Source: Mesaphorura yosii
Lineage: Eukaryota; Arthropoda; Collembola; Poduromorpha; Tullbergiidae
Length of the DNA: 64,000 nt
NCBI GenBank assembly: GCA_009869945.1
Contig: WIXG01000310.1
Coordinates: forward strand, 30,024 to 94,023
Direction of reading: 5' to 3'
Of the stretch, positions 13,927 to 57,400 are shown one piece after another; position 1 is the stretch's first letter; every line of letters begins with the position of its first letter. A program made the translations under genes and the position numbers. The notes under the pieces are model-generated. The model saw nothing but the letters and a program-made list of their open reading frames with translations. It ran no database searches and had not been told where the DNA came from.

Positions 13927-15472
13927 ATGAAGCCCCAACAAACAAGTTTCCAGTTTGTGTTAAGTGCGTGTGCGGCGCTTTCCACGATGATTCTGGTCGA
14001 TGGCCTAGCCATCGTCCGCCGAAATGTGCTGAAAGTTCCTCACGACGTACATCCGGGCTACGGAATCAAGAAATTCAGCGATGGACACCTGTACCACCTC
14101 ATTCCGAACGAGTACTCCCACTATTTCACGATACTGAGCAACGGGCTACTCATGAGCACTGCCAATATCACGAACCTCGTCGACCACCCCGTGTCGCTGG
14201 CGATCGATGAGGAAATCCCCGAGTCAAACGTGTCGACGACGCATACGCTCCAACTTTACGTGCTTGACAGCCATGCGATGCTCGCGTTTCCGAAGGAGCT
14301 GTACAGGGGCCACGTGCTCGAGAACAAGCCGGTCGGGACTGCAGTGCAGGGCCTCGCCGGCGTACGGCCGACGCTCGACCCTCGCCGCAAGCTGAAGTAC
14401 GAAATTATCAGCGGCGACGGCAAAGGCCTCTTCCATATCAGCACAAACGAGTCAACCAACGGATTCGAGCTCGTCACAACGAAAGAACTCGACCGCGAAG
14501 CGAAGAAAGAGTACTCTATCGTCATCAAGGCTTTTGACTTGCTCGGAGTTGATGCGGCCACGACGAAAATCGCCATTGAGATTGACAACGAAAACGTAAG
14601 CTGGGATTTCCTTTATTTTCTTTGCCAAGATGGTCGAATTGTTTAATTTTCTGGTCAAAACTCATCAAAATTGGTTAATTTTCAGGATAATTGCCCTGTG
14701 TTCGAGAAAGACGTGTATCATTGGGTCCTTCCAACTAACACCACCAGATTTTCTGTCATCGGGACGGTGAAGGCCAAAGATGGGGACGGTGACCACGTGT
14801 CTTATCGTCTCACAAGTCCAAGCTCGACCTTCGTTGTCGTACCGCAAACCGGGCAGGTGCTCCTGGTCAACACACCGACTGAAGAATCGTACCAGCTTCA
14901 GGTTCAAGCACACGACGTACAAACACCAACATTATTCGCACTGCAGCCGGCAACTATTTTAATCCATGTTGGGTCGCCAGAGTATTTGGAGGGCATGATG
15001 GCCATAGAGTCAGCACAGGACGACAAGGACGGAGGAGTCGTCGTGGTCATTCTTAACGGAGACGACGACGAAGACGGTGATGACGACAAAACGGCTGAAA
15101 ACCAATTCTTCGACGAGCCGCCTGACTGGCACAGCATCGATGTTCATTCGCACGCACATTCCCACACTCACAGCATTGGCATTGGCCCGACTTACAAGCA
15201 CCGAATCACAAAGCGCCGTGTCACTCGCGCAGTGCGCCCGACTGTCAGAAAAGAGTTTCTCGAGTCGGAAGGTCAAGTCGAAGGTCGTCCAGTGTTTGAG
15301 CTCACGAAGGAAGTTGAGTTTGAAACCTTCAAAATCCGGGATGAGAATCCGTGGGTGACGGTCGAGCCCAACGGAGCCGTACGCGTAAAGAAGAAGTGGG
15401 ACTACGAGGAACTCGGGCAGGAGAAAACGATCGACTTTTGGGTTATGATCACGAACCCTGGAATTAACAGCG
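13927..15472 (+). CDS. CadN: CadN exons 1-2: signal peptide and N-terminal region
   Basis: Exons 13927-14595 (residues 1-223) and 14686-15472 (224 to about 485). The ATG at 13927 opens a signal peptide ending near [10 protein letters not shown]. Degenerate N-terminal cadherin repeats follow, with [16 protein letters not shown] and the linker [13 protein letters not shown] across the first junction. An acidic/Gly stretch (about residues 334-362, [12 protein letters not shown]) is followed by a His-rich patch ([10 protein letters not shown]). Next is a basic block, [16 protein letters not shown], which contains RVTR and other furin-like RxxR sites and resembles the [11 protein letters not shown] block of Drosophila CadN. 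The conserved end [12 protein letters not shown]-like and [13 protein letters not shown] segments confirm the family. Exon 2 ends with a single G (phase 1), which matters for the 9-nt microexon downstream. Confidence 0.93.
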
Positions 15473-30400: not shown

Positions 30401-33400
30401 GTCATTGCATTGAGTTGATCCAAATTTTAATTAAAATTCCAGATACTGACAATCAGCGGGTCATAATCTACGTGAAGGACGTCAACGATGAGGCACCGTA
30501 CTTTATCAACCGTCCGCTGCCCATGCAGGCTGTTGTGCAGCTCAACGCACCGCCAAACACCCCCGTCTTCACGCTCCAGGCGAGGGATCCGGACACGGAC
30601 CACAGCATCCACTACTTTATCGTGCGTGACAGAAGTAAGTCGATCACAATCACAAGACAATTCTATGATAGCCTGATACCAATTCAATTAATCTCCATCG
30701 GTCGCTTTTTCTTGCTCTTCTGCAGCCGGCGGCCGTTTCGAAGTCGACGAACGTTCTGGTGTCGTCCGAACCCGAGCCAACGACCCCTTCCAGCTCGACA
30801 TGGAGTACGTGCTCTACGTGAAGGCCGAAGATCAGAACGGGCGACTGGACGACCGGAGATTCCAGAGCACTCCAGAAGAAAGGCTCTCCATCGTCGGAGG
30901 AAAGCGACCACCGCAGTTTTACATGCCCAAGTACGAGGCAGAAATTCCGGAGAATCGCAAGAAGGATTCCGAGTACGTGACATTTTGCTACTTTGTATAT
31001 TTATCGGACGGGCAGATTGCTCTTTGCCCTGCTCACGCACGCACGCAAGCTGCTGGTTTGCTCGCTGCTGGTGAATTAAACTCTTAAAAATGCGGCTAAT
31101 CAACCCAAAACCAAAATCAAACCAAACCACACACAAACTCGTTATCGTTTCTCGTTATCAAGTCATCAATATCCTTTTTTGAAGCAAAGTAACTTCAGTC
31201 AAGCCAGTTTTACGCGTGTGGCTCTTTTTCGCGAAAACTCGACCCATTATAACAAATTGACAGTTTGCAGTTCATACGAATAATACGAAACAACGATCAA
31301 CGAAGCGAGCAAGGCCGTCATTAAAAAAATCGACGAATGTACCTTAAATATTAAGCAGATGGCTTGATTCTGCATTCTTCCGCGAATTCGAAAAGTGGTA
31401 AAGTTCTGGTTAAGTTCGGGTACAACAAGTGATGCAGTAATGATTAATTTTGTTGGGCACCACCTGCTTGTCTGCGATTACAAAACTGTCAAAGCGCAAT
31501 GTTCAGGATTAGAAACCCACTTAGTAATTGCCTACATTATTGGGTTGAAATACCGGAAGTCAACGGCATCCGAATTTTTCTTTGCTTCAGACCTCAGTCA
31601 GGAAGAAAAGGAAAAACATTTCTGGTTCCTTCTACGCCAATGTCGATTCGCTATTACATTCCAAATAGTGCCTTGTTCCATTAGAATGGTTCTTACTGAT
31701 GATGTTGAGTCTGATAATTCTTTGTTAATTGCACCGTCAATTAACATTTAAGCCAGTTAATAGAAATCCGGAATCTGTGCCTGAAAAAGAGCCGGGCGCA
31801 ATTTTGCAAAAGCCTCGTGCGAAAATCAATTCAAAGACCAGAAATTGACGGTTGAGCGTCGAATCATGACATCTGCAAATAATTAAGCCATTAAAAACTT
31901 TGTACGTTGGTACAAGACATTTTTGTGCTATTCTCAGTAGAACAAAGCCTGCCTGCTGCTTTCCAGCTAACTCTTTTGGCTTCTTGTCTTTCTTTTTCAA
32001 ACTCGGCTCAAATTACGAACTAGGTAGGCATGCCGTAAAATAAAGTTTTCTCACTTAAACTCAAACGTTCGAAATTGACATGGAAAACAAGTCAATGCGG
32101 ATCGTAAAACAAGAACAAAAAATTCTTAAAGAAAGGACCGGGCTCAAAAGATAAGTCGACAAGTGCTTATTTAAAGGGAAATTCGTAATGGCAGTTTACT
32201 GTTTGGTTTTAAGAGGAAACATAAACGCAAAACGCATACAAACATGTGTTTCTGTCATATGCGTGCAGTGAAGCCAATAATTCTTCATAACTGCTTATAA
32301 ACGCGAAAGACCATCGCCAAACGCGACGGGGAAGCATACTTAAAGTGTCATAAATGCGTCTGGAAAGGCAAGGCAGTTTCCTGATTAAAACCTGATGGTT
32401 AGAGATTCGGAGCATATTCTGCAGCGCAGCAAAGATGCGTTGTTATTATTGTTGTCACCCTTGAGAATTAACCCTAAATGAACACAGACGAGACGGGAAA
32501 ATCGACGGCATGAGTCACACATGTGAGCATCTGAGCGTCTTTCATCCCGAGCCAATATTTCGACCCATTCTTCAGTCTTATGCGCGGGCGATTTTGGGAT
32601 GTAGATGACCAAAATATCATTTTCTGGACAATAAAATTCTATTTCTCGAGTATTAACATGTGTTTTATGGCTTTGAGGTTTACAATCTCACATTTTGGGT
32701 AATAAACTCTGGAACTCGTGGCGTACCGCGATGGCGATGGGCAATTGACAATTGTCCAGCTCAGAGATCATAAAAGGAAGATTCTGTCATCCGCTGCAAC
32801 GGCAAGGCAGGCAGTCGCAGTGAAGGCAGTGACAATGACAATGACACTGGCGCCTTATTCTGCGCTGCGTTCGGCTTTGAGTAGGAAGTTGAAGTTGAAA
32901 CTGAAGTTAAACTTAACTGACAACAACGACACGGCCGACGCGTAATAAAACTGTGACATGTGACATGACGGCTTTCTTTCTGGTTCAGAATGGGCTGAAC
33001 AGGGATGGGAAGATTTTGATGTGATTGAATGCTTGCGTCTCGAGTTGAATTTAGTTTTCTTCTTTTCTTTCTGCTTCTGCGGTTGACGTCGATAGTAAAA
33101 TTAAGCAATTACATATAAACTCCAAAGAGTTGTCTTAGTGGGTATGGTGGAAGGGATTTGTAGGAATAGACCGAGAATTCCAGTAGAGACAGTTTCGACT
33201 CGAGTTCCTGGAATAAGAACAGTCATATTTCTTTATTTGGAATGTCAGATAAGAAGGAGAGGAGAGGAGATGACAAAATTATCGCTGTCGTTGTTGACTG
33301 TGACAATAACATTATGCATTGCGGAGCCGTGTCGCGAGCCGTCTTTTTCGGTAGTTTGTTGTAAAGATGTAAAGAAGAACGTATGGAACTGTGCTAAATT

Positions 33401-36400
33401 TAGAATTTCTAAGCACGAAATCAAATTGCACCATATTAATCATAATTACTGCTTGCTGTCTCGTGCCTGATCAGGCCAGGGCAATTTTCTCTCTTTTCGG
33501 CGCAATGACGCACGCGGCTCCCTATTTCATGCCCCTTGTTAACAAAGTCATTCAAAAGTTCCAGTCACCAGCCTATAATTAGCTCAGGCCAAGACTCAGC
33601 TTGGCGCTGGTTTTTAAATATTGGACGACGTGACCTTTCCCGGCCCTGGTCCACCCGGGCTGACTCGGATTGCAAGTTTCATGCTTGCGGTTAGCTTTGA
33701 TCAGTCATCAGCGTCGAAAGTGACGTCGCATTTTCGGCATCGCTTAGCGTAATTAGAACCTCAATCTCTGAATAATTCATGAGATTCAGAGGAGTAAAGT
33801 TTGGCGCATGAGACAAAGTGCAATGGTAGAAATTCGGTTTTCGGGTTTAGAAGCTCAAACACAGAGAATCCAGGCTCCAGCGTCCAGCGAGACTGTTAAC
33901 ACGAACTTGTAATGTAATTGGATACAATGCTACAAAATAACATGGCACAGCATCCGCTGGCTCCTGGCTCTCAGGCCAGGAAACTCATCCGCGCGAGGAC
34001 GAGAATGTACTTGATCAGGAAGTCGTAATGCGAGATGCTGTCACCATAAATTGTGGCTTAAGTGACTCCGCTGCTGCTAACGGCTCAGTTCGGCGGCGCG
34101 CAGGTTAATTGAATTTTTACGAGCAGCGGCCCAGCAGCAAGCGAGGCGATAGGCGATGAAAATAAAGCATGACTCTAATTTATTGTCTTGTTTTCTTCCC
34201 CGCTACGCGTAACAGCATCATCTCCGTCAAGGCAAAGTCGTTTGCGGACCGCGAAATTCGCTATACGCTCAAAGCCTCCGGACAGCAGGGGCAAGGAACC
34301 TTCAACATCGCACCGACGACGGGCATCGTCAAGCTCGCGAAGGAACTGGACTTTGAAGACCTCCGCCAGCCGCACGTTTACCAGCTCATGGTCACGGCAA
34401 CGGAGGACTCGGGTGGATTCTCCACGAGCGTGGAGCTCACGATTCGAGTTTCTGACGTGAACGATGTAAGCTCGGCCTTTTAGAAAAGCAGTTAGAAAAA
34501 TATGCGTAAATCAGGAATCCTGCTCTTTCACTTTTCCAGAATGCACCAAAATTCGAACTGCCCGACTACCAAGCGCACAACGTGGACGAAGACCTGCCGC
34601 TGGAAACCTCGATTCTGAGGGTGAAGGCGACCGACGCTGACTCGGGCTCAAACGCAGAGATCGAGTACCAAGTCTCCGATGATCACTTCAGCATTGACCC
34701 GAACGGTGTCATAAAGAACAATAAACAGCTGGACGCGGATAATAATAATGCGTACTACGAGTTTGTGGTCACTGCTAAAGACAAAGGTAAAGTGAGCTAG
34801 GGCCCGAATAGCGCTTGATAAGATTGATTGCCGGAGATCTTTACTTGCATGGCAGTGAAGGCATTTTTATTCCATTTCTTTAAACTGTGTCACAAAAAAT
34901 GAAACCTAAAATTCATGGCTTACTTGCGTCATTCCTTATGAATTCTTGGTTATAAAATTATGATGGTATGAATGACAATTAAATTCACTCATGACTATTT
35001 CAGGTGAGCCGCAGCAAACCGGAAGCGCCACTGTCAGGATCTACACGAAGAACAAGAACGACGAGGAGCCCAAATTCTCACAGCAAGTGTACACGCCCAA
35101 CGTTGACGAGAATGCTGGACCCGACACGCTCGTCACGACGGTCGTGGCGTCGGACAAGGACGGTGACAATGTTCGGTGAGTCCTGCCAGTTTTATGCCTT
35201 GGAGCGGCTTGCTTCAGAAGTAATTTACGGTGCCTGTTGTTGTTTGCAGCTTTGGATTCGTTGGTGGTGGCACCAAATGGGTGAGTTGTACTTTACAGTA
35301 CTTGAAATGGCATTTGAGTGAACAGGAATTGAAACTGGAGTAGTAACGCTTAACATGAAAATATTGACATTAAACGGCAACACTAAGTAACTACTCTGAC
35401 TCGAAAATAAACTTTTATTCCATCACCACAGGATCAGTTCGTCATTGAAGACTACACCGGTGTCATCCGTCTTCATAACGGAGCCATCGACTTGGACCGT
35501 GACAAGTACGAGCTGAATGTAACGGCCATTGATGACGGTAAGAGGTAACCTGGTACTATGGTACCATTGTCGTATCCAGGATGAGCCGACATTTCTTGTG
35601 TCGACCTGCCTCCAGGCTAGATGGTCAACTCATCCTGAACTTTTGCAATTATTTAGTTTGCTATTGATCATTTACACATTACATAAACTGTTGCATTGCA
35701 GGGTCGTGCTGCGAGGGCGGTGCGGTGACCATCCACACGTCCACTGCCGTGGTTGTCGTCTTCATCACTGATGTAAGCTCAAAACACGGCGTTCAACGTC
35801 GAATCGTCGAAAGTAGCCTCTAATTTGCAATTTCTTGGCCAGGTCAACGATCAAAAGCCATTGTTTAAAGACTGTGCGTCATACAACCCAAAAGTTATGG
35901 AAGGCGCGCCGAATGGAACACCCGTGCTTAGAGTTCATGCGACAGACGACGACAAAGGTGCCAATGGACAAGTAAAGTACTCGATCGTCCAGCAGCCAAA
36001 TCAGAAAGGAGCCAAGTTCACGGTCGACCCGGAAAGTGGCGAAGTGATCACGAACAAGGTGTTTGATCGCGAAGGAGACGATGGCAAATTCGTGTCGCTG
36101 ACGGTGAAAGCCACCGACCACGGAGACCCTCCACTCGAAGGTGTCTGCTCCTTCAACGTGGAAATCTTGGGTATGAACGCAGCGAATTGACAATCAATTG
36201 TAGAATTTGAATTTGAGTAAGTAAGCAGGAGCTAATTGTTGTAATCCCTGACGTATTTTCAGATGTGAACGATTCTCCTCCCCTCTTCGATCGCCAGAAG
36301 TACGTTGAGAACGTGAAGCAAGACACCAGCGTGGGCGCTAACATCCTGCGAGTGTCCGCCAGCGACGAGGACGCCGATAATAACGGAGCGATTGTATACA

Positions 36401-39400
36401 CCCTCGCGTCCCCTCAGAATCAAGGGGATTTGGATTACTTTGAGATCCAGCCGGAGTCTGGCTGGATTATTCTCAAGAAACCGCTCGACGTAAGTCAAGT
36501 CAAGCTCAGTTTTTCCTCGAAGCTGTTAGAATTTCAGGAAACGAACTTGTTAAGGTATAATGAACTCAGATAGCAGTAGCGAGTTGTGTGAAGATTTGAG
36601 TTTGAGGTCTTATATCTTGTGCGCAGGGAGCCAATTCTTTGCAAAATCCAAAATTGATATCACAAAGCACAAGCACGCTTCGTGGCGTGTCAGGAACAGA
36701 ATGCCATTTTAATTGTAGGACAAAATTTAAGCCGCTGTTTAGAATTTGCGCTGATAGCTTTCATAAATTCAAGTAAGACTTGACCGATTCATCAAGCAAG
36801 GTAATCGAATCAGCTTCAAACCGAAAACCATCGTTGGCATTATCACTGGATAATCGTTTATCGTTTCATTTCAGTGTTGTGTAGTTTAATGTCCAATTTT
36901 TCAGTTTCTGTTTTTATTTCACGTTGATAGCACGATTTTTGACAAAAGAAAATATTTTGATCCGCGATTTGCGAAGACATTTTTTGAAGCGCAATCGACT
37001 TTTCTGTTGTCTTTGTGAAAATTTAGAATTCAGATTTTTACGACATTTTTTAAGACAAGGCAAAGAATTTTTGAATGCCGCGAGGAACTTTGCAACCCTT
37101 CCCTTAATTTGTGTGTATTTTGTAAATCTTTTTGACGGAGTGGATCGGTTCAATTGCAAATTTGTTTTTAGCGTGAAAAGTATCGCTTGCAAGTTCAGGC
37201 TTCCGATAAGGGACTGGACCCTCTCGTGGCGGTAGTTGACGTGGAGCTGGACGTAGTTGATCGTAACAATAAGGTTGGTCCATGACAGAACAAATTAGCC
37301 AATTATAAAAGAGCAGATGAAGGCACCTTTATTACCAGTAAATCAGTAAAAATCGGAACAAGAATTAAGAAAGCGAGTTTTTGTTGGCAAGAATTGAAAG
37401 TAGTTAACTAACACAACATTTTTACTTTTTTTTATCTGATGAACGAGTGACGAATTTATCCAACGTATTTTGCTTGCTAGTATCTGGGTTCGACTCCTTA
37501 TCATCGTTGCTTTTAGTTTGATTTGCGTCCATTATCTTAACATTTTGAAGCAAGTGAATGCATGGGTAGAATCTTAAATTCCCTTTGTTGTTATATAATT
37601 GACATTGTACTGGTTTACTGGTAATGAAGTGAAAACGAGAAGACTGATCACCTGAAGAACAAAGTGATTCAGTGTGACAGAAGAGAAATTTTGAAATTTA
37701 AGCCGCGCTTATGCATTTTTTAAGCCACCAATCTGGGATCAAGGAGTGTATGGACCGATTTACACCAGGGAGAATGTGACAGTTGGTACAGTTGTCACGC
37801 CTGTGAAAGCAAGGTTCGTACGTTGCCCGGCTGGTATTTGGTGGTATTTCTAACGCGTATCGTAACGCATCGCGTAATTCACTTGCCTTTGCTCTTTGAC
37901 TATTCTTCTATTGTACTACTTCTTCTTTGTGGGCTCTTAACTAAACACTTAAACACTGCGTCACTCCACCATGCACTGTAATTAATTTAATGATGCCTTG
38001 CTTCCGCAATTTGCAATTCACTGGTGAAGGTGTGCTACGCTAAAAGCCAAAACGCAGCCATTGTCGTTGCCTTACTCAAATCCGCACTGTAGCTTATCAT
38101 ATTCGTATTCGTATCAGCACTAGCCAATCAGCAAGCGTCGTGCGTGTTTAATCGTCAATCCCCAGCGAAAAATCTCATTTTGTAAAAACATGGTAAAAAA
38201 CTCGAATCTCTGGTCAAAGGTCAGGTATTTAGGCAGAAAACATGCAAAATTGTTAATTAGGATAGGTTAATTACAGTTTTTGTCGATTAATTCACTTTCC
38301 TCATCATCCTTGCCACTCCACAGCGAGATTCCTACAAATTTGAAGCCATCGCCCAAGACAAAGGCTTTCCTCCGCTCTCGAGGACCGTCGAAGTCCAGAT
38401 TGACATCGTGAATCGTGACATCAACCCTCCAAAGCACGATTTTCTTGGTGAGCCGCTGCGTCGCTTTCGCGTTGCGCGTAGCCACTGAACGTAGAGTCCA
38501 AGAAAAATGCTAATTATTCGTGCCTTTCAGTCTACGGTCCGATTCACGTGAAGGAAAATATGCCCGTTGGAGCCAAAGTCATTTCGGTTAAAGCCAGGTA
38601 CAAATGCAATACAAATGCGTAGCGGCCAAGTGTGGGAAATGATAAATAGTTTAGACCCGCCGAGACGAAACAGATTTTTGTGCATGGCAAAATGACAGTG
38701 TTCAGGTTTGTGACTTGACTTGACTTGTGACATTGCGTCATTGCGCATCGCACTGCAGGGAGTCAGCCGACTCGAATTTTGAGCTTGGAAAAGAGCAACT
38801 TTTGCCTTTGCCCACCTACCAAGCGCCGCTTCTTTTAACATTTAAAGCATTTTTTTGAATTTGTGGAAGCGACCGCGTGAGAAATAACAAAAGTCACACA
38901 CTTTGAGCCGTCATTTTGTCATGTAAATCTCGACCAGCGAGAAGCCGAGCTAGAATTTTGGCCGTAGAAAAACTAAAGCACGAATTTTTTATACGCGTAC
39001 GTGTACAAGAATTTTGTACGTCTGCCTTTTTTAATGAGCCGCAGACAATTTTGTTGATGTGTCTTGATCGCAATTTTGTAGTAGAAAGTGATTAGTCAAG
39101 CGATTAGTGAATTGTTTTAGAGAACGTCTGCGAATTTTTGATGCCAGAACCTGGAATATTGTGCGTAGTTTGTAGTTTTATATGTATGCTCTAATTAATT
39201 TTTGACGAGCTGATTGTATTTTTCGTAATCTACCTACGATATGGTATATAGTGATATGATTTTTGAGGCAGGTGAGCCATGTTAGTGGGTAGAAATGCAA
39301 TGCATCGATCATGCGAAGATTGTAAGGAGACTTGTATTTTTGACGTAGATTTTAGAAATTGATGTCGTGAAGCTTTTTTGTCCGTGCCGTATCGTACATT

Positions 39401-42400
39401 GGCATTGAATTGTAAGATCTGGTCAAACGAATTTTTGATACGACCAAGATCGCAATTTTGCGAAAGAATAATGAAACGAAGCATTTTGCAATTGCATATT
39501 CGATATTCAGTGTCTACAAATTAGTCTCGGTGTTTTGTATTTTGTAATTTTTACCAGCCTCGAATTTTTGAGCCTTGGCCCCCAAAACCAGCCCGAATTT
39601 AGTGGCTATCCCGATCGGATTGCTTGAGATGCAATGCAGTGCATGGAATTTGAATTTTGATACCTCTTTTTCAATGCCTGTCGATATTTCGAATGCGTGA
39701 ATGAATTGCTTGACTTCTATTTCCATTTTTCGTCTTTTTCGGGCCAACCTGCGGCCTGTAATTGTAATTTTTCAACTAAACTGAGAGAATTTCTGCTTGT
39801 GTGAATGAGAGAATGTATTTTTTGAAAGCGTGAGTGTGAATGATTGCAAAATTGTGTTCGTACTTCCGTCATTAATTCACATTTCGCAAAAATCCGCACA
39901 GCTCTGGGATCGAAGGAAATCCGACCGTCTTCTACCGCCTCATCCGGGGTTCAACGGCCCAGACAAACAAGTATGACACTTTTTATCTGCAGCAGCGTGA
40001 GGAGAACGGCTACACGTGGGCCGACATCAAAGTGAACCATCCGCTGGATTACGAAACTAACAAAGAGTACAACCTCACCATTCGTGTCGAGGTACGTACG
40101 TCCGCAAATAAATGCATACAAATGAGTACGAGGGCCGGGTGGAGAAATAATACGAGTACGAGTACGAGAAATGGAAATGAATCGATGAAATAGAAGATAC
40201 TCCATTTTCCATTACGATTTGAGAATTAGTTTACTGCCACGGCCCATTTTCCAATAGATATATTTTGACACGGTTCCTTTTACTGTACCCGCCTGCCTGT
40301 TTGGTATTTAGAACAATGGAGCTCAACAACTCGCGTCTGAGGCGACCATTTACATCATTCTCGAGGACGTGAATGATGAAATTCCACTTTGGGTCGGTAA
40401 GTCAAAGTCAGCGCAAAGCAGACAGGTCAATAATCCCGATTTTAATTAAAATCTACCAATCTACGTCTTTCTTGCCCGAATCATTCATTTCTATTTTCTA
40501 CGAACTAAGGCGTAAACAATTTTGTTTGACACACGCGCATTGCGTTTTCAGAGCGTGAACAGGAAACCGTCGCTGAAGGAGAGCCTGTTGGGACTCGAGT
40601 TTCGCAAGTTAATGCCATTGACAAGGACGGAACGGCTCCAAATAATCTGGTACGCCCGCCACGCGACTGAAAATGATTTTGACAATGAAGTTTATGAGCC
40701 ACGAAGCTACGGCTGTCAAATGATATTTATTCGTATTTTCGCCTTTACACGATGCGTATTTTAGGTAAAATATTACGTGGTCAACTCGGAGGGAAAGGAC
40801 TACTTCGAGGTGAACGAGTTTACTGGAGAAATATTCACCAAAGTCGTATTCGATCGTGAGAAGCAAGGTGCATACGCGTTGGCGATTGAAGCCAGAGACA
40901 GCGCGCCGTCCGCCCGGCCAAACAGCAATGGACAGCCAAACACTGGTACGGACAACTAATTCATGTTTTGCTGGGCGATGTCAATAATTTGAGTCAAAGT
41001 TTTCAAAGAATTCAGCCAAATGAAGTAGCGATCTAAAAAAAAGGGGTTCATTGCTGCGTCTTGCGTGGAACCAGCATCCGTACACCGGTAGATTTAAGGT
41101 AGCTGTTGCGCAGAGGAGAAATCTTGGCGCAGGATACTTTCACCACTTTCCTTCACGGCTCCACGCTGAGGAAAGTGAGACCGTCAAGTCAGTCTCTGTT
41201 TGGTCTTTCTCTCGAGCTCATCCACAAAGAACTTTGAACTTTTCTTTTCCTAAACGTGAAACGCAAATCTTTCGAGCTGAAACTGAAGCAAGGACAATTT
41301 GACCATTAAGTGAATTTTAGAGCCAGATCAGTAATTTAGGAAATAATTAAGCGAGTACTCATTCTTAATTCGTGCATTTCGTATGTTTTTGTTTTGGGCT
41401 TGCAGTTACGAAATTCATCCGAATTGGAATCGCCGGTAAGTTTATTTTCTTATATGCCTCAATAAAACTGTCCATACCGGATTCCTCAACGCTAATTATG
41501 ACACGTTCTCTGAATTCTCTGAATTTCAGATAAGAACGACAACCCTCCATTCTTCAGTCAAGCCCTCTACGAGGCGGAAGTCGACGAAAACGAGGATATT
41601 CAGCACACTGTTCTCACCGTGACTGCGAAGGACCTTGATGAATGTAAGTGCACTTTAATTTTTCATTTACGCCGTAACAAGGAGAAGGCGACGGTTGAAA
41701 AGAAGATTCCATCCAAAAATTGGCTGCGTTTGCCGTTTGCATTAATTTGCATTTTCCGCTTTCGTTTACCAAGAATTCGTAATTTGTATTCGAATGGAGC
41801 GCGGATGAATTTTTAATTACACAATAAATACTTCATTAATATTGCTAAGCGTCTGTTGCTGCTGCTGATGGCTAGCAGGTTCCTGAACAGGCAATTAGTT
41901 TTTAGTACAGAATTCTTGCTCTTAATTACTAAAGTATGCGAGCTTTTCACATTTGCAGCGAAAGTTTTTCAAAAGACCTGCACCACACAATTTCAAAGGA
42001 AACGGTACACGTGCGCTTTCTTCGAAAATTCTTTGTCAAAAGTCTTAAAAGTTGGTCGGTCAAAAAGAATGTCCACTCATCAAATCAACGGTGGAGACCA
42101 TTCCATAAAGATAAACACAATCTGATCACGATGATGAACTCGTTGAAGGTCTCACGCTCGTGCACCAGCTTTTCTTCAGTGCACCGCGTGCTGGCACGCT
42201 CCATTTCCCTTCATGTCCTGTCCCGTATGAACGAAATGCAAAAGTAAAAAGTCAGGAAACATAAAAGCAATGCTCGTTTGGAGTGCTCCCTCGTATTTTG
42301 GATTATTCTTATTATTTTGCAATGAAAATGAAGACAACACGCAACACGAGGCGAGATAAGCCAAAGTATTATGTTATCGTCATCTTTATCCTCATCCTCT

Positions 42401-45400
42401 CTTCGCTGCTGCTGCTAGCCAGCCAATCTATCACTTTGATCATCTCCTTCCTCCTTCCTGTGCCTTCGCTCGCCAGGTTTCTTTTCTTTTTTCTTCTGTC
42501 TTAAGAAAACTGAAGAATAAGGATCAGAACCAGGAAGCTTGCTCGCCTTTGCTGTTTGGTTCCTTTGAACCTTTGATAAACTTGTTTCTTTGCAAAAACT
42601 TTGTCCGAGACCGCGCAGGCGATTTTGCAAGGCCCGGCCGTTTAATCATTGGCATTGGCTTGTGAGGCGTTAGAAATTTGCTGCTGCTGCGATGCGATAG
42701 AAAATTCGAATGCGATCGGGAAAAGAAAAGGAAGAGTAAGCGTGTGGTGTGCTTTCAGTAAATTGGTTGTAAATTACGAGATGAGATGAAACGAGCCCGT
42801 GTCTTTTGTGGTCGCTTGGTGTCGGTAATAAGCTTGATTTTCCGTTCGCCACACAAGCTACCATCCTTTTACTTTTAAACTCCTACGGATAAATTGTTCA
42901 TTTATTTACGCAGTCCGGCCCCAACCTCAATTAATTGCGATTGCGACAGACTCGACAGACTTTCGTACGAAATAATTAAACTCTCGTCCGTACTGTGCTT
43001 TGTGGTTAGTCGTTGGTTGGTTGGCTGCTTTGCGAAGCAGCAGCCGCGCAGTGATTAAAACTTTCTCCTGAGCCCGTGCCTGTGCTTGTGGCTGTGCCTG
43101 CATCTTGTACGTGCATTTATTGCTATTGCTGGTTGAGTAATGAGTGCAAGTAAAGTTTGGGTAGAAGCATTAAAAGTTCCATGACCCACTAATTTGCATT
43201 TGCTTACATGCAAAAAGTTTAATTTTATAAATTGTCGAAGCTGCTGCGAAGCAGGAGTACGTAACGAGATTTAACTGCAAACTTTCTCCATTTCAAGTTC
43301 CACAAACAGCGTGGCCGTGTCCGGTTTTTGCATCCTTCTTTCTTATCTCATTCCTGTTTTCACTGTTATGTTAATCATAATCGCAAGTTTCTGCTCTTCT
43401 TTAGCACAATTTCACATTCCGATCGCATTTTCCCTTCGAGACTGCCTGAATTCTAGAGTTTCGAGTCCCAGGCGGCGAGAGTTCAGACGAGGCGATGACC
43501 ATACGTGAAAGAATGTCAGGTCGATGAGAAAGTGAACGCTTTGATGTCTGTCCGGTCTCTGAAAGACTCTTCTCGTCGTCCTTCATCGCTTCCGTGAACT
43601 GAATGGAACGAACACAAGCTTGGGCGTGGGCGGACGCTTGATAAACAGGATAAATGAACTGCGAGCTCTTTCCTCGAACGCAATATCCAGAGACCTAAAT
43701 CCCAATCCGAAACATACACGGACGAAGATCAAAAGGCAAGGCGACTTTCACTGAGCTTCTTTTCAAAGAATTTCGCAAGCATGAAAGATTAACCTGAAAA
43801 TTGAGCATTACGAATTGTAAAGAGCCAAATGGCGCTTGGCCACTCAATTTAATTTACCTTCAGGCACAGTCCGCATTCTCGTTGCAGTGAAAGTTTTCGG
43901 AAATATTGACTCAGGAAAAGCAAAGAACAAAAGCAGCAGGCATGAATAGCAATGAATTGGCTTTGGTGATGGTGGTTGTGATTTAATGCATGAATAATGA
44001 GACAGGGAGTTGAGTTGATAAGCCGTGATAAGCACGACATGAAATATGAATGCACTTTCACCCGGCCAATTTTTATTAGAAAGGAAAACTGCAAATTGGA
44101 CAGTCCAACTTTTGCCTTTCGCATTTCCTGGTCGAGATTTTAATGCGACTTTCACCGCACGCATCAAAAAGTGCTATAAATTTTTTAAAAAGCTTCCGTT
44201 TCCACTTTCACTTTCGGCGTGCGCGAACCTTCTCTCTTCGTATGCGTCTTGTCATAAATTGTCTTCTAGTCTTCTTGGTACACTTTTGGAGAAATGAGAA
44301 AGTAGAAAGGTTAAATATTAGAAAATGCACTCCATTCCAAATTTATTTAATGAAGACACAAAGCCTTCCTATTTCCGTACACGTACGTGTACGCATGTGT
44401 GTGCCTGAAGCGGAACTATTAAGTATTAAAATTGATTAATGGCAGAGTAATTATTAGAACAACCTTTAGCTCTTTGAGAAGCGAGGGAGAATGGAGAAAG
44501 TCAGCTTTCACGGGCCCCGCGGACTGGCTTCATATTGTCGGATTAATTTCAAGTCATTAAGTGTACTACTCACTCCGTGCTCAGCTTGGAAGGCTGCTAC
44601 TCGTGTGAGTGTTTATATTTAACAGATAATGGACATTAAATAATGGGTGGTAATTTAACAGACACAACAAATATTTCATTCGGAAGTTTTTTTAGTTGTT
44701 TTAGCAAAACATATTTATTTATTAAAATCACAAAAAAATCCTTCTAGCAAATTTATACTTGATCAAAATAATTATTTTAAATAGCGGTGCAAATCATTCG
44801 AAAAGAAAATGGACCTATTTTACATTCTCAACAGCGATTTTGTGGCACTCTTCGGTCTTCCACGTTTGCGCTTCTGTCTGATGGGAACATTCTTGTAAAT
44901 ATTTGGGAACGAAGTTAGCTTTTTATGTGATGCCAAACCGTAAACATGCTTACATTTATAGTTTTTTTTTAAAATATGAACAAATTCATGAGGACATTTT
45001 CCAGTCCGAAAGATTAAAATTTATCTTGTATGAGGAAAAGTGAATCTTCTTGAAGTTGTTGAAGGTTCTCTGCTGTGCATAAAAAATTTGAGGGGACAAT
45101 TTGAAGTGCACAGCGCAGAGTACACGCAAGAACTAACTAAAAGGAAATGAAACGATTAACTCGTGGTTTATTTTTACACGAGCTGCCCTTATCTTTTTTG
45201 ATAACTGTAAATCAGTTTTGCTAGAAGAAATATTAAATTTACCAAAGACTTCATTTGCTGAGTAATTAAAGTTTTGTTTTGCTAAAAGAAATATTTATTT
45301 AGACTAAAAAATAATAACCTCTAAACAATGCGTCCAGGATTAAAAATATTGTGGAGCTCATTTTCCGGCCCAAAAGCAAAGTGAGCGGATTAAACACAAA

Positions 45401-48400
45401 ATCCATAATAAATCGAGTTTCGACTTCTACAAAATAAGTGAGAAGCGATTTTAAGACCCGAAATGTCAAATCCGAATAAAAATAGAATCGTGGTTGCTGG
45501 TTAAAGTGGTCTGGTAAATCAATTCTTCTTCAATGTGAAAATGTGATTATATAATGGCACAATGCACGGTGGTATTATTACCGCACAAATGGATTGAATT
45601 CATTGATTTACATTTTGCTAGGTTTCCTGCCTGCTGTGAAAAAAGAGAATAGAATAGAATTCTTTTTATTTGGAGACTTTAGAATTCGAATTCACCGAAG
45701 CTGAAGCCAATCGTAATCGGAATTCGAATTCGAAGTCGCGAATGTCGCGACCGACCGACTTTGGCTGGCTAGCTTGGCTTCGTTTGTTCAGACATGAAGC
45801 TGATTTCCGGGTGGCTCATTGCCTTGTGGCTTGCCTAAGCCCATGATTTATTTCTCACATTACTGGCAGTACGTAAAGAATATTTGAAACTGTGCCAGTG
45901 CCAGGGCGCTTGACACTTTTATTGAGATGTGATTCCCTTTCGGCTCGGCTCGAATTTTCTGTCGTGTGGCTGTGGTTTTAATGTTTATTATTTTGTGTAT
46001 CGGAACACATTGACCTTAAATAGACAGGCAGACAAATTTTATTGAGTACGCACCATTTGAGCCGTCGTTAGCCCATTTTTGAGACTGTGACAAAGACTGG
46101 TGGCTTTTCCGGGCAGGCGACTGGATACTTGACATAAATTCGATCGCGTTTGCATCGCATCGCAAGGAACCCGCTGGCGCTGGCTAACTTTTGCAACATG
46201 CAACAATGGGCTGCCGATTTTCGTTTTCCAATTGAATTTCCGGTAAACGACAAAAGAAGAGCAGAAGAACAAAATTCTTCGAGCATCTTGAAGCATCTGC
46301 GAACTGCATACGCGTGCTCGATTTGGAATTATTAGGAAATTGAAAATGGAAATGCGGCGCGTTGAAAGCTGTAATCAAAGTCAAAGAGAAAGTAGTGAAA
46401 GTAAAAGAAATCTCTGGAATAGGAAATTGAGTACATCTTACTTTACTTTTACTTGTGCGATTCGCCAACTTTTTCAAGCCAGGCACGACTGCAAGCAAGC
46501 AGCAGGTGGAGGACGTTTTTTATGCTTGAGAGGACGGCTGACTGCAGACTGCAGAAGAGATGAAACGCTGCTGCTGCGGAACTGGCTTTACTGGGCATGA
46601 ATACCAAATACAAATACGCGCACGCACGATATCGCGAATCTCGATTGAATCTTCAATGAAGTGTGGACGACGACGATCGAGCGTGCCGTTGAAGCAGAAT
46701 CAGAATGCAGAGGCATTCTTGTCCTATCTTAAGTCTTGATATCATTGGGCTGAACTGGAAGATTCTTTGTATTGTGTTCTGTATCTCGTGTCCGTCTTTC
46801 AATACAGCTCGAAACGCGAATTGAGTCCGACCGTGAGACTGGATAAAATTTGCAATGTAATGCAATTCAGTGCGATCTGAATCTACTCTTGGTTGAAGCT
46901 GTCGCACCTAGATGTGCTGACTTCTTATCAAGCCTGTTTGCAAAAGTTACAAAAGGCGTCCGAATCCGAATCACGCTTGGGATTGGAATCTTCTCTTCAA
47001 CGAATAGACTCGAGTTAATTTGACTTTTGACCACTAATTTCGCCTTTTTCTCTTCCAGCGTCAAGAATCAGGTACGAAATAACGAAAGGTAACACTGGTG
47101 GCGCCTTCGCCGTGAAGAACATGACCGGAGCCATTTACGTCGCCGGACCGCTCGACTACGAAACGAGGAAACGGGTAAGAAAGGCAGGCTTGGCATGTAT
47201 CATAAAAGTACAAGAAACAGGAGACGCCAATTACAAAATTATATAGGAATGAGAAAGAGTCAAGGGTTTTTGTAGTTAATAATCATGTTGATGGTGATGC
47301 TTGGAGTTTGGACGTTGTAAAATGACCGACGAGACGCGAACTCGAGAAGCATAAAATCGCATGGCGCAATGTTAAATTGGTGGCGGTAACAGAGCATTTA
47401 CGGCATTTTTAATGACATTCCTGTGCTGTTCTCTTCTCTCTGCTTTATTTACGCTGCCGTCCGCCGCTGCGACTGCAGTATGAGCTGAGGCTTTCTGCAT
47501 CCGACAACAAGAACGAGAATTCGACGACCGTCATCATCCACGTGAAGGATGTCAATGACAGGTAAGTGCAGTGTAGCAAAACGGTGGTAGAAACAACGCA
47601 GTTATTTCGCAACGATTGGAGGTCCAATACATAAAATATGAATCCGCAGTCCGCCAGTCTTCGATCGTCCAAATTACGAGACACAAATCACCGAGGAAGA
47701 TGATCGAAATCTTCCGAAACGCGTGCTCCAGGTTATTGGCCATTGACTCAGCCATTTGCTATTTGCAATACACAAGCAGCTTGCCTCGCTTTGCACTCGT
47801 GCTCGATGGCGTTTTCTGTGACAGCGCACAAGCAGAAACTTTTGTTTATTGCTTTAGCTTATTGCTTATTGTTTTCGCCGGTTCTTCCTTTATACATGTA
47901 TTTGCTTGGCTTTAATCTCAATAAAAGCGCCCGTGCCGTGACGTGTGCCCTGTGACTCATAAAAGTTGACTTGACAATTTACGTCTCGCCAGCGCAGCCC
48001 TAGAAAATATTAAATCATAAAAATGTAGGCAAAGGTAATAACAATTTCGTATGAATTACAGTGCAGCTCTTTCGTATCGTATTTCGTGCGCACCAGAGCG
48101 AAATGCGCATCCGACTTCACGTTGGACCCGAATTCTAGAATTCCGGGCTCATTTTTCAATTTTGGGCTGAAATTCGTCTTCATTTACATGTTGGCAATAC
48201 GATCTGGCTACTTTTTATGCATTACACTGAATTTCGAGTTCGGCAATGCCAAAAAATCGACATGAAATTCCAAAATTCTACAGCTTCTTCTTTTATGGGT
48301 GATTCCGCTTCGGCAATCCGCGATTACGTTTGTGGTCCACACAAATTCTATTACTCTAACCGAATCCAGAGAAAAAGACTGCCGTGTGGGTGTCCACTGC

Positions 48401-51400
48401 TGCGTCCTGCATGACCGGCTCTTTTAGCAGTTGGCAATCATTGCCGAAAACCAAACTTTTCAGAATAAATTTTTGTGAGAATCCACAAAAGTTGCATAAA
48501 AAGACGAAAGTTGCAACGCGAGCTTGGCGCTGTTGGCTTTCTGGCTTTTGTTTTAACATTGGCATGATGAAACTCAGATTCTTTGCTCTGGTCGACTTTG
48601 TGTCCGTCTTCTGCTTCTTAATGTCCAAACGACGAATTTCGAGATCTTGAAGAGGATTTACTTAAAGATCGTTTTGCATTTTCATTTTGAACGTTTTACT
48701 TTCGTTCGATTTTCCCATTCTGAATCGTTTACATTTCCTCGAATCCTTTTCCACAATTTTCCCGGACTTGAATGCAAATCCGAAGCGAAACTTCTTCCTC
48801 GTCGTCTTCTTCGAAAATCTCTAAACACTCAGCTGAACATCTGTTTGTATTCTTTGTATCGTATCCAATTTGTCACATTGTAAACTTCAAAAGTCACTTA
48901 CTTAGCCTTCACGTTGATGTTGACGTTGACGGCTCGGCTGATACCGTGCTCGTTGCGCTTGAGTAGCTGAATACCAGACGGGCTCAGGCTCAGCCAGAAA
49001 ATAGAAAATCGTTTACGGCTTGAGAATATGAAAGAGGAACTTTCTCCGAATAATACATTCACGCACCCAGCTCTTGAACTTTGTATCTGCCTGTCTATTA
49101 TTATTATTCGTCACTCGAAGCCGAGCTGTAACTGCGAAATTCAGATGTGTGCATGCGTATCTTCCAAACTCAAAATTGCACTGCGCTTTCACTTTATTGA
49201 TATTTACGTAATGATAACACGACGAAAAAGAGGAAAACACGACTCGCGCTTTCATTTCGCAACGCATCTCGTCTAATGCATGTTTTCATTTTACTCTGAA
49301 AATTGATCTCTGAGGCTGCGACGTGGGAAAAGATTCCCGTATGCTAATATTTTGGATTCGAATTTCATGCAGTGCGAGTGTGGAAAACAAATGCGAACCA
49401 GCGAATTCATCCAGAATCTAATTCGAAAGAAATTCGGAGATGATCATCGATTGAACTTAGAGAAAATGATGCTGATCTTACATTCAGATCTTTTGTTCCT
49501 GGGCTCTTTTAGCTTTAAGTTTTTAAGTTTATTTACGTCGTTTTAGTTGTAGCATGGCTTCTTGTGTGCTCACGTCGTTGATTTTTTGTTGTCTTTCTTT
49601 AATTTGCCAGTATGAGTTGACTTTGGTTGCTTCTGACACGCTGAACGAGAATGAGACGACCGTGATCATCAGGTAAGGTCACTGTAGCCGAGCCGTAACT
49701 GTAATTAATCACTGATGTATCATTTTTGCATGGGTTCTTGCCGTTTTATCTGTGATTAACATTCTTTTGTATTTGTATCTGATTTGCGTTTCGTGACGCG
49801 TTTGTAGAATTAACGACGCAAACGATCTCCCGCCCGCGTTTAGCGAGACTCTGTACAAAACCCAGATCGAAGAAGAGTACAACGAGAATTTGCCATTGAA
49901 GCTGCTGAAGGTATCATTTAAATTGTCGATTTGTGCTTTGAATTGCTTCATTTTGATTTTTGCACCATTTCGCTTCGCAATTCGCAATACACTGCTTGTC
50001 ACTTCCAATTCGTTATCACTGCCCAAATTAATACCCGTGCCCGCCCTGCGATTAAATTAGGTCACTGCCACGGACGGAGACAAGGACCGCCCCCAGAACA
50101 TTGTCTACTTCCTCACCGGGCAGGGAATCGACACGGACAACCCGGCCAAGAGCAACTTTGACATCAACCGCACGACGGGCGAGATTTACGTGCTCAAGCC
50201 CCTCGACAGAGATCAGCCGAACGGGCGAGCTCAGTGGCGGTTCACAGTTTTTGCGCAGGACGAAGGTGGAGAGGGACTCGTCGGCTACAGCGACGTGCAA
50301 GTCAATCTGAAGGTATGATACAGTAAATGGGTCGTTAAGATTTAGGCGCAGACAACAAAAATTGACGCACGCACTTGGCTTGATTGAATTCTCGCAGGAC
50401 ATCAACGACAACTCGCCAATGTTCCCACTTGGCGTGTACGTCGGAAACGTCACTGAAAACGGAACTTCTGGTAAGCATTTCAGTTTACTCACGCGTAGAA
50501 TGTGCGCATCAAAGACGGTTGAGCCTGATGGAACTGTTTTCTAAATCCGTGTATGTACTTTTCTCTTTCAGGAATGGTTGTGGTGAGTCCTTTTCTATTG
50601 AATTCTGCTCTGATACGTGGACGGTAAGTGCAACTAAGACGCTCGATGGTAAACATAATGCTCATTTTAGATGACCATGACTGCCATCGACTACGACGAC
50701 CCGAATGAGGGAACAAATGCCAAATTGACGTACTCAATCGAGAAGAATGTCATTGACGAAGAGCAAGGACGACCAATCTTCGAGATTGAGCCGGAGACGG
50801 GAGTCATAAAGACCGCTGTTTGTTGCCTGGACCGAGAAAAGACACCAGACTACTCGATACAAGTCGTGGCGATGGACGGCGGAGGGCTGAAAGGCACGTG
50901 TGCAGATTTCATTTGCTTTTTTAGAATTTAGCACTTTAGCATGCTGCGCGAACTGAATTGCTAATGAGCAAGCGCGGTTTCGGCGTTTTACATTATTGCC
51001 CACTTTCCTTTCATGATTCATTTCCAGGCACGGGCACGGCGTCCATCAAAGTGAGAGGTAAGTCAATTCTCCATAACTTCATGCAAACGTAATTAAACTA
51101 AAACTGGATTTCCTTTCTGTTTCTGTTTCTAGATGTCAATGACATGCCGCCCAACTTCACGAAAGGTAAGACCTGGCTGGAATACAAATGATTCAAATCC
51201 CTGCTGGTTTTTAGTATCGTGTGAACTATCTTTGTCTTGTCTGGTCCGCTTTTCAGATGAGTGGTACACGGAAGTTGACGAGACGGAAGGAAGCTCGCTG
51301 CCCGACTCTCCGATTCTAACTGTCACCGTGCACGACGAGGACGAGACAAACAAGTTCCATTACAAAGTGCTGGAGAACAGTGGTTATGGAGCAGACAAGT

Positions 51401-54400: not shown

Positions 54401-57400
54401 TATTCCCATCGAAGACGCGTGTCTCGGAAATGACATCATTTCAAGGTGCTCGGAGCACGGAACCTGCGTCGGGAGCTTCAACGAACCTCGCTGCGAGTGC
54501 AAGGTAAGTTGGATTCTTCTTCTTATTAAATTATTGTTTTAAAAAACATTATGTTATCATAGCATCATTAAGTTAAAAATTTATTTATTGAGCTCTTGCG
54601 TGTACACTTCCCGCACATGAATTTGAATGAAAATTAATGAATTCAGCCAGGTTGGATGGGACCGTACTGCGGTACTCGAACCGTTGCGACAACATTCAAA
54701 CAGCAAAGCTACGTCAAATACGCGTTGTCATTCGAGCCTGATCGCTTCGTGACATTGATTCAGCTCAGATTCAGAACGAGAGAAGCTCATGGTGAACTTT
54801 TCCGCATCAGCGACCAGCATAATCGGGAGTACGGCATTCTGGAGGTAATTCCTTTGCTGTGCTGCTTAATTATATTCTTATATTTTTACCATGTAATTTT
54901 GTCAATCCAGATTAAAGACAGCAAACTGAGATTCCGGTACAACCTGAACAGTCTTCGAACTGAAGAGCGCAATCTGTGGCTCACATACGGGACTGTCGAC
55001 GATGGGCAGTGGCATACGGCGAAAGTGTCCCGGCACGGTTCCATTGCGATTCTGGAGCTGGACGGAGGAGAAGGAAAGAATTACAACGAAACGTTCAAGT
55101 TTGCCGGGCACCAGTGGATGCAGGTCGATAAACAAGAAGGAGTTTATGCTGGAGGCAAAGCAGAGTACACAGGGCACAGATCGTTTGAGGTTTATGCTGA
55201 CTATCAGAAAAGTAAGTCTGACTTGCGACTGCGAAGCTGTCTGGAACACAGATACTTCAGTTACTTAATTGTGCTGCTGTGCCGGTGAATTTCAGGTTGC
55301 TTGGATGACATTCGACTGGAAGGGAAGCATTTACCGCTTCCTCCTTCACTAAACGGCACGCAGTGGGGTCAGGCAACGCTGTTTCGAAATCTCGGACCGG
55401 GTTGCCCCTCAAATCGGCCTTGCGATAACGTCAGTTGTCCTTCGCCATTCAACTGTACCGATCTCTGGATGGAGTACGAATGCGCGTACGTTTCATTTTA
55501 TGCTTTACCAAATACTTAAACTGCTTGAACTATTTTCTGGATTCACGAACCAAAAACTAATTAACACTTTACTTCTCATTTCTAATTTCATGCTGCCTCC
55601 TTTCACATTCTAATCTAATGCCCGGTGCTTGGTAATGTTAACTAATCTTGCCTACAAAAGTTGTGCGGAAGGTCTGCAGCCGACGCTTGACGGGAAAGGT
55701 TGCGAGGACAAAAACGAATGTCTCGATAATCCGTGTTTGAATGGGTAATTTACTTTCGATAAATCTTACGTGAAATTGGCCGAGGGCCAAAGAATCAAAG
55801 AGCAGAATTAATAAGCAAGTTTTGAATTTGTGACGTGATGATGGCTGTTTGTTGATTTGTTTGTTAAAACATGTTTACTTAATATCTCTATTACCACTCC
55901 ACTATAGTTTTGACTAGTTCTTAGTTAAGTTATCCAATTACTTAGAGTTACTCTTGGAAAACGATTCACCCGCGCAAATCCTGACGTGGTTTACATGCTG
56001 CACTGCACTGCGTGTCAAGATTTGGGCACTTATGCTAATCACGTCGGATCAACAGTAAACCTACACGCTGTAATTGTGAGTCATTTGAATGGAAGAAGCA
56101 GCATCACTTCAGGAGATGGAAGGCAAAAGTACTCTTCAGAAGAGATTTGACAATTCATCTCAACTAGCCTTGACCCGGGCAACTTCCGACGAGACTCTCA
56201 CGTATATTTCTCTTACGAACATGAAACAGTGGGACGCGAGATCGCGGAGGTCCCGGTTTTACACAAGCTTTCCAAGACTGAAAACGCAAGAGCCGTTGAG
56301 GCCAGTTTCAAGAACGAAACCGGTGCTTATACTTACAAGGGGTTAGGGAAAGGAGAGCTTAATGGATACAGTGGATAGATAGCATAGCAATTACTTACCG
56401 CTGTTAATCAAATTTTTATTTACTCAACACTTACTGTTGTACATTTAGTCAACATAGTCACTTTTCTTAATTACTGACGTGTTTTATTGTATTAAACACA
56501 ATACTTTCGATTTAATTTAGTTGGTCTGGAGTAGAGTAGGTGGTCGAGCTCTTTCAACTACTAACATCACTTTCTTCTTGCAGTGGTGTTTGCTCGAATC
56601 GCGACCCGTCGCTGCGTTACTACTGCGAATGTCCTCCGGGATACTGGGGACACGACTGCGAACTTTATCAGGAGGGGCAGATTTTGACTCTCAGGTTAAC
56701 CACGAATACTAATTACAAATCAAGAGAATCTTAATCTGGAGCCTGTCTCGATGTTTTATGTGATTACTAATTAATGCAGCATGGGAGCTCTGGCTGCCAT
56801 CTTAATCTGTCTTCTACTCATTCTTAGTAAGTGCTACGATTACGATTCTGGTGCGAGGAAATTGATTAATTAATTAGCCAGGAGTTTAATTAACAAGAAA
56901 AATAAGCTACATTTGATTCGTCGAAAAATGGTTGGCAGCTCGCGATTTGCTTTGTTCCTTTTCTGTCACTTTATTGTCTTTGATTTCTTGTTTCCCCTTT
57001 AATTTCTGCTTTCTACAATCATTTTTGAATTTTTGGTTCACGCTTATCATTTTGCCCTTCCTGCTTTCATTTACGCAGATGTCCGAAAGGGACGCGCCAA
57101 ATTACAGATCAAGCCGACTGCGTAGACATAGACGAATGCATCGAAGAGATGCCATGTCAAAATGGAGGTACCTGCGAAAACCTGCACAACTCGGAGCAGT
57201 ATTTCTGCATCTGCCCGGCCCCTTTCGGGGGCAAAGACTGTGACGTTGAAGTCCTGCCTTCGGGAATTATCACGACGTCCGCTGATTTTGTTGTTGCGCT
57301 CATTATTTGTATTCTGGTCATGTTGAGTAAGTTTTCTTTTCTTCGTTTTTTCCGTTGCAATTTGTGAATTTGGGGCTGCCCACGACAGCTTGAGCCGAAA

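What the first reader, a model, noticed from the sequence alone, without database searches (positions are those of the whole stretch)
36490..39901. Cassette 1 of CadN: two mutually exclusive two-exon modules, each 191 nt
37172-37273 plus 37725-37813, and 38324-38447 plus 38531-38597, encode homologous replacements of the same segment between KKPLD and SSGIEGNP. Both start at phase 0, both end with AG, both total 191 nt. Drosophila CadN is known to have an alternative pair here; here each alternative is itself split into two exons.
Basis: partly seen in the sequence, partly recalled or inferred. Interest (0 to 1): 0.8.

Follow-up and report, generated by a model that had tools for sequence, protein, structure and literature searches.

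The report
Split alternative exon pair in N-cadherin
A small-genome arthropod carries the long-known choice between two versions of one N-cadherin segment, but here each version is cut by its own extra intron, so the cell must choose between two-exon modules instead of single exons.

Summary
37172-37273+37725-37813 (102+89) and 38324-38447+38531-38597 (124+67) each give 191 nt, enter in phase 0, leave in phase 2, and encode homologous 64-residue segments (30 of 64 identical). The gene is CadN (type III cadherin). Published fly and beetle primers identify the modules as ME-7a and ME-7b, a mutually exclusive pair known from insects and Daphnia (PMC2655722). So the pair is known; the split is the news, and even that has a precedent: insect 7a has a 12-nt micro-exon 7a'. 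The internal introns lie at different positions and phases. A paralogous cadherin gene here has the collinear segment in one 197-nt exon, so separate intron gains after duplication are likeliest. ME-13a, ME-13b and ME-18a are also split; the 6 introns match what the gene's intron density predicts (4.9). New: the a1-a2 intron holds a 22-bp helix, longest in the window within 700 nt and reached by 0 of 2000 intron shuffles, which could join a1 to a2. The swapped segment contains the EC7-EC8 hinge. Mutually exclusive use is inferred; no transcript was available.

The parts
36263..36489 (+). constitutive exon upstream of the choice, ends KKPLD, donor GAC|gtaagt, phase 0
37172..37273 (+). module 1a (= ME-7a), exon a1, 102 nt, 34 codons, frame-neutral; weak donor AAG|gttggt
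37274..37724 (+). a1-a2 intron, 451 nt
37327..37348 (+). left arm of a 22-bp uninterrupted helix (20 Watson-Crick and 2 G-U pairs)
37608..37629 (+). right arm of that helix; loop 259 nt
37725..37813 (+). module 1a, exon a2, 89 nt, ends phase 2 (AG)
38324..38447 (+). module 1b (= ME-7b), exon b1, 124 nt, ends phase 1
38448..38530 (+). b1-b2 intron, 83 nt
38531..38597 (+). module 1b, exon b2, 67 nt, ends phase 2 (AG)
39902..40091 (+). constitutive exon downstream, begins C TCT GGG ATC (S SGIEGNP)

Best explanation
This is the conserved arthropod CadN ME-7 choice. Exon 36263-36489 is joined either to module a (ME-7a: a1+a2) or to module b (ME-7b: b1+b2), and the chosen module to exon 39902. Each module replaces the same 64 residues: the last third of cadherin repeat EC7, the EC7-EC8 linker and the start of EC8. 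Shown from sequence: homology, equal total length, matching outer phases, intact frames, and orthology to 7a and 7b. Inferred: mutually exclusive use in mRNA. Likely working, inferred: each internal intron is removed within its module (83 nt in b; in a, a 22-bp stem leaves 53+95 nt of path outside it in a 451-nt intron), so each module behaves as one exon. Regulated choice acts on weak splice sites, and double inclusion or double skipping breaks the frame and should be removed by nonsense-mediated decay. Most likely history: a single 0/2-phase exon was duplicated before insects and Daphnia parted (PMC2655722), and each copy later gained its own intron in this lineage. At protein level the switch changes the partly calcium-free EC7-EC8 hinge inside the EC7-EC9 part that holds major homophilic-specificity determinants (PMC8325961).
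For: Coordinates, frames, 30 of 64 identity. Both isoforms built are open through 1097 codons. Eight published fly/beetle primer peptides compared with 1a and 1b: 7 favour the assigned module and 1 ties (for seven; the eighth, primer H, was mis-framed there and rescored, 10 of 11 against 8). Best cases: Tribolium 7a RENVTVGT 8 of 8 against 4, fly 7a VTVGTVV 7 of 7 against 3. Primers from PMC2655722; other primers and probes of that paper were not scored. ME-7 is stated there to be 63 residues. All three ME sets are present in the published order: 13a and 13b 165 nt each, 18a 242, 18b 248. No close second copy was found: with isoform b as query the next place by E-value is 33% identical (best candidates only), and a1 DNA has one match. 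In a second classical cadherin gene the segment lying between matches to both flanking exons is one 197-nt exon with the same 0/2 phases; aligned to modules a and b it gives 16 of 66 and 15 of 65 identical, reached by 0 of 1000 shuffles each. Stem: 0 of 2000 intron shuffles reach 22 bp; 1 of 60 block-shuffled windows does; lowest z of 21 introns of 120-1500 nt; no second genomic copy found. For each of the four module donors at most 8 of 27 constitutive donors score as low or lower.
Against: No transcript evidence. a1 is frame-neutral, so a1+b and a2-only products are not blocked by frame. The fold of the whole a1-a2 intron is no more stable than shuffles (z -0.85, 22 of 100), another intron (55745-56583) also beats its 40 shuffles (z -2.6), and with no relatives the stem has no covariation test. 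Weak donors are not general in the other alternative exons: ME-13 and ME-18 donors rank from 0 to 25 of 27. The linker calcium motif is degenerate in both modules (DRNNKPP, NRDINPP), although PMC2655722 lists DxNDNxPxF as present in all ME-7s. Each module alone is below the Pfam Cadherin cut-off (13.9 and 20.9 bits against 28.8); in spliced context both isoforms pass (88.4 and 95.9).
Confidence: 0.85

Rival explanations
1. Not strictly exclusive: a1 behaves as an independent cassette exon, so some mRNAs carry a1+b1+b2 or a2 alone.
For: a1 is 102 nt with phase 0 at both ends; a1+b1+b2 and a2-only give no stop in the tested context. Its donor AAG|gttggt is weak: only 1 of 27 constitutive donors scores as low or lower.
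Against: a1+b would duplicate a half-repeat and a2-only would delete one, which should spoil the cadherin fold (inference); published insect transcripts use 7a or 7b (PMC2655722).
Confidence: 0.1
2. Exclusivity is set by competing RNA pairings between introns (docking site and selectors), as in Dscam or srp.
For: This is called the major mechanism for such exons in PMC6071210 (passages, including parts of the abstract).
Against: Of 10 intron pairs tested, none clearly beats its 25 shuffles: the two best are each matched by 1, the other eight by 3 to 25. The one strong helix lies inside the a1-a2 intron and does not link the two modules.
Confidence: 0.15
3. The internal introns are ancestral and were lost or moved in insects and in the paralogue, rather than gained here.
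For: The intron-rich spider type III cadherin genes are taken as the ancestral arthropod state (PMC5473995, passages including part of the abstract); insect 7a is accompanied by micro-exon 7a' (PMC2655722).
Against: The two modules are cut at different codons and phases, and the paralogue has the collinear segment in one exon, so losses would have to be repeated.
Confidence: 0.2
4. Module 1a is a decaying relic and only 1b is used.
For: Both of its donors depart from consensus at +3 (gttggt, gttcgt).
Against: Open frame, conserved 7a signature [12 protein letters not shown] borders on both exons.
Confidence: 0.04

Closest known systems
CadN ME-7a/ME-7b of insects and Daphnia (Hsu et al. 2009, PMC2655722)
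   Same: Same gene, same place, same order, 63-64 residues, same signature residues, accompanied by ME-13 and ME-18 pairs
   Different: Both alternatives are split by an intron at unrelated positions; in that paper the only split I saw reported is the 12-nt micro-exon 7a' of insects, with 7a only
Insect micro-exon 7a' plus 7a (PMC2655722)
   Same: One alternative made of two coding exons that travel together, never with 7b
   Different: Here the split is 102+89 and no 12-nt exon is needed; 7b is split too
Mutually exclusive exons as searched for by length, phase and homology (PMC3228551, passages)
   Same: Modules have equal total length, equal outer phases and homologous products
   Different: The exons themselves have unequal lengths (102/124 and 89/67) and different inner phases, so an exon-by-exon search would probably miss them (inference, not run)
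DN-cadherin EC7-EC8 partial Ca2+-free linker (PMC8325961, passages)
   Same: The module contains this linker, by my count of repeats from the furin-like site
   Different: That paper does not treat it as switchable: 'isoform' and 'alternative' occur 0 times in its main text

Membership tests
CadN ME-7 pair | type III cadherin CadN gene with ME-7, ME-13 and ME-18 in order | tested here: met
CadN ME-7 pair | 63-residue alternatives between the KKPLD and SSGIEGNP exons | tested here: met
   191 nt each = 63 codons + 2 nt
CadN ME-7 pair | orthology of each alternative to 7a or 7b | tested here: met
   7 of 8 published peptides favour the assignment, 1 tie
CadN ME-7 pair | calcium motifs DRE and DxNDNxPxF said to be present in all ME-7s | tested here: inconclusive
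   7a has DRE and DRNNKPPIW, 7b has DRD and NRDINPPKH; the linker is called partly Ca-free in PMC8325961
CadN ME-7 pair | each alternative is one exon (7a plus micro-exon 7a' in insects) | tested here: not met
   two exons each, other positions. Layout, not a defining feature in my view; filed as a variant because orthology, position, length and outer phases are met
Mutually exclusive splicing | each mRNA contains exactly one alternative | not testable with these tools
   no transcripts held
Mutually exclusive splicing guarded by frame | both-in and both-out are out of frame | tested here: met
   382 and 0 nt both frameshift into stops; a1+b and a2-only are not guarded
Exclusion by steric hindrance | too short a distance between the alternatives (<50 bp donor to branch point in PMC5740500, passages) | tested here: inconclusive
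   510 nt between a2 and b1 makes it unlikely; no branch point was predicted
Exclusion by U2/U12 incompatibility | one alternative with U12-type sites (U12 consensus recalled) | tested here: not met
   all GT-AG with U2-like donors, judged by eye on the output
Docking site-selector exons | competing complementary intron elements | tested here: inconclusive
   no inter-intron pairing clearly above 25 shuffles in 10 pairs; covariation untestable

The most novel reading that the evidence does not exclude
A nested form of mutually exclusive splicing: the unit of choice is a two-exon module, and module a is held together by a dedicated 22-bp intron stem that joins a1 to a2 before the a/b choice, while module b relies on an 83-nt intron. 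The choice swaps a flexible hinge in the homophilic-recognition part of N-cadherin.
Probability: 0.25. Interest if true: 0.5.

Novelty: new variant of a known kind. Interest (0 to 1): 0.35.

Why it matters
It suggests that a mutually exclusive choice kept for over 400 million years (PMC2655722) can survive the insertion of introns into both alternatives, so the unit of choice need not be one exon. It gives a natural test of how two exons are kept together inside an exclusive choice. It warns that annotation methods that look for single length-matched exons may miss such modules. It also links the old ME-7 switch to the EC7-EC8 hinge.

Tried and rejected
Docking site-selector pairing between the five introns: nothing clearly above 25 shuffles in 10 pairs. 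Repeated GAATTTTTGA-like motif in the downstream intron: strong against the intron's own shuffles (GAATTTT 8 against a mean of 1.0, 0 of 500), but by a test that does not pick the motif in advance this intron ranks 19th of 44 segments, so I do not claim it. Known RNA families in 36490-39901: none at gathering score. Transposon origin of the stem: no second genomic copy found. The split as something special to alternative exons: rejected, 6 introns seen against 4.9 expected from 27 introns in 6591 nt of 30 constitutive exons (left out of that count: coding exons before 30443 and after 57326, and the introns flanking the alternative sets; the unresolved stretch 50471-50670 is counted as one intron). 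Naming the species: COX1 family not found (8 of 14 controls rang), an exact 18S pattern not found, odorant-receptor family 7tm_6 not found, but none of the 14 controls rang either. A second classical cadherin with type IV features judged by eye points to a pancrustacean. Paper searches gave no report of a split 7b that I saw; the library lacks most subscription journals. Papers seen: PMC2655722 abstract, parts 1 and 4 of its main section, and passages; PMC5473995 and PMC6071210 passages including parts of the abstract; PMC8325961 start of the abstract and passages; PMC3228551, PMC5740500, PMC3912159, PMC2257972 and PMC3385985 passages only.

Full report
WHAT IS THERE. The four exons are at the stated coordinates with GT/AG borders. 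a1 37172-37273 (102 nt) and a2 37725-37813 (89 nt) sum to 191; b1 38324-38447 (124) and b2 38531-38597 (67) sum to 191. Both enter in phase 0 after KKPLD and leave in phase 2, so that AG plus C of the next exon makes the serine of S-SGIEGNP. The products are 30 of 64 identical, score 152 against a maximum of 14 in 2000 shuffles. Spliced with their neighbours (7a with 13a, 7b with 13b), both isoforms built give 1097 open codons from 30443 to 50312.

WHICH GENE. Solved structures (isoform a searched) and Pfam agree that the segment is cadherin repeat: the spliced isoforms score 88.4 and 95.9 bits for Cadherin, while each 64-residue module alone stays below the 28.8-bit cut-off. With isoform b as query the next place by E-value in the 93-Mb genome is 33% identical (best candidates only). 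Independent of memory, primers printed in PMC2655722 encode peptides that match 1a where they are 7a and 1b where they are 7b: of 8 compared, 7 favour the assignment and 1 ties. The genome holds a second classical cadherin gene with a compact type IV look by eye and no hit to the insect odorant-receptor family (no control rang), so a non-insect pancrustacean is likely but not shown.

WHAT IS KNOWN. [quoted passage not shown] So an alternative made of two travelling exons is already known here.

WHAT DIFFERS. Here both alternatives are split, at unrelated positions: after codon 34 in phase 0 (a), and inside codon 42 in phase 1 (b). The same holds for ME-13a (83+82) and ME-13b (62+103), both in phase 2 at different codons; ME-18a has three exons (84+111+47) and ME-18b one (248). 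The 30 constitutive exons modelled between 30443 and 55485 have 27 introns in 6591 nt, which predicts 4.9 introns in the 1202 nt of alternative sequence; 6 are seen. The split is thus ordinary for this gene. In the paralogous cadherin gene (L014) the segment lying between matches to the two flanking exons is one exon, best read as 197 nt with phases 0 and 2 (a 184-nt reading was the other candidate and has the wrong end phase). It aligns to modules a and b with 16 of 66 and 15 of 65 identical, 0 of 1000 shuffles each. Different positions in the two copies and none in the paralogue favour separate gains after duplication; losses elsewhere remain possible, since intron-rich type III genes are taken as ancestral in arthropods (PMC5473995, passages).

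HOW EXCLUSION COULD WORK. Both-in (382 nt) and both-out (0 nt) shift the frame into stops; a1+b1+b2 and a2 alone do not, so frame guards the choice only in part. Steric exclusion is unlikely (510 nt between the modules), and all sites look U2-type by eye. No pairing between introns clearly beats 25 shuffles in 10 pairs. For each of the four module donors at most 8 of 27 constitutive donors score as low or lower by a matrix from this gene (a1: 1, a2: 8, b1: 8, b2: 4); donors of the other alternative exons range from 0 to 25 of 27, so weakness is not general.

THE STEM. Inside the a1-a2 intron, 37327-37348 pairs with 37608-37629 over 22 uninterrupted base pairs (20 Watson-Crick, 2 G-U), with a 259-nt loop. 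It is the longest uninterrupted helix spanning up to 700 nt on either strand of the window (next 19). 0 of 2000 intron shuffles and 1 of 60 block-shuffled windows reach it. By energy it is the most extreme of 21 introns of 120-1500 nt tested (0 of 100 shuffles, z -4.0; the next, 55745-56583, has 0 of 40, z -2.6). Against it: the whole-intron fold is unremarkable (z -0.85, 22 of 100), and there is no relative to test covariation. It leaves 53 nt to the a1 donor and 95 nt to the a2 acceptor, so it could make a 451-nt intron act like a short one and join a1 to a2. This is a hypothesis.

PROTEIN LEVEL. Counting repeats from the furin-like KRRVTRAV (window ORF 14647-15489) through the linkers in the translation, the module covers the end of EC7, the EC7-EC8 linker and the start of EC8 (my count). 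PMC8325961 calls the DN-cadherin EC7-EC8 linker partly lacking calcium-binding residues and a predicted bending site, and places major homophilic specificity determinants in EC7-EC9. The two modules carry different degenerate linkers, DRNNKPP and NRDINPP. A hinge switch is therefore a testable idea; the abstract of PMC2655722 says that no significant difference between the fly isoforms had been demonstrated in vivo.

VERDICT. A real, well-formed member of a known alternative pair in an unusual exon layout; new variant of a known kind.

Noticed in passing
47479-47561, 47650-47731; 49611-49672, 49808-49910: ME-13a and ME-13b are also two-exon modules, 165 nt each, split at different codons, both in phase 2; being multiples of three they are not guarded by frame.
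   Followed up: partly
55661-55744, 56584-56694, 56780-56826; 57079-57326: ME-18a is split into three exons (242 nt) while ME-18b is a single exon (248 nt).
   Followed up: partly
50471-50670: The exon ending at 50470 leaves phase 1 but the next clear exon (50671) begins in phase 0; a very short exon is probably missing from my model here.
   Followed up: no
50894-51027: Best-fitting intron here has a GC donor (AAG|gcacgt).
   Followed up: no
38598-39901: GAATTTTTGA-like words, mostly on the sense strand: 11 AATTTT+G against a shuffle mean of 1.7, irregularly spaced; not exceptional among 44 segments when no motif is chosen beforehand.
   Followed up: partly
L014 1218-1790: Second classical cadherin gene; the segment collinear with ME-7 is one uninterrupted 197-nt exon with phases 0 and 2.
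   Followed up: yes
60636-64000 + and 4215-4664 -: Neighbouring genes by eye: a WD40-containing protein resembling Jouberin downstream, and the start of a signal-peptide-peptidase-like protein on the minus strand upstream; names from memory, not tested.
   Followed up: no
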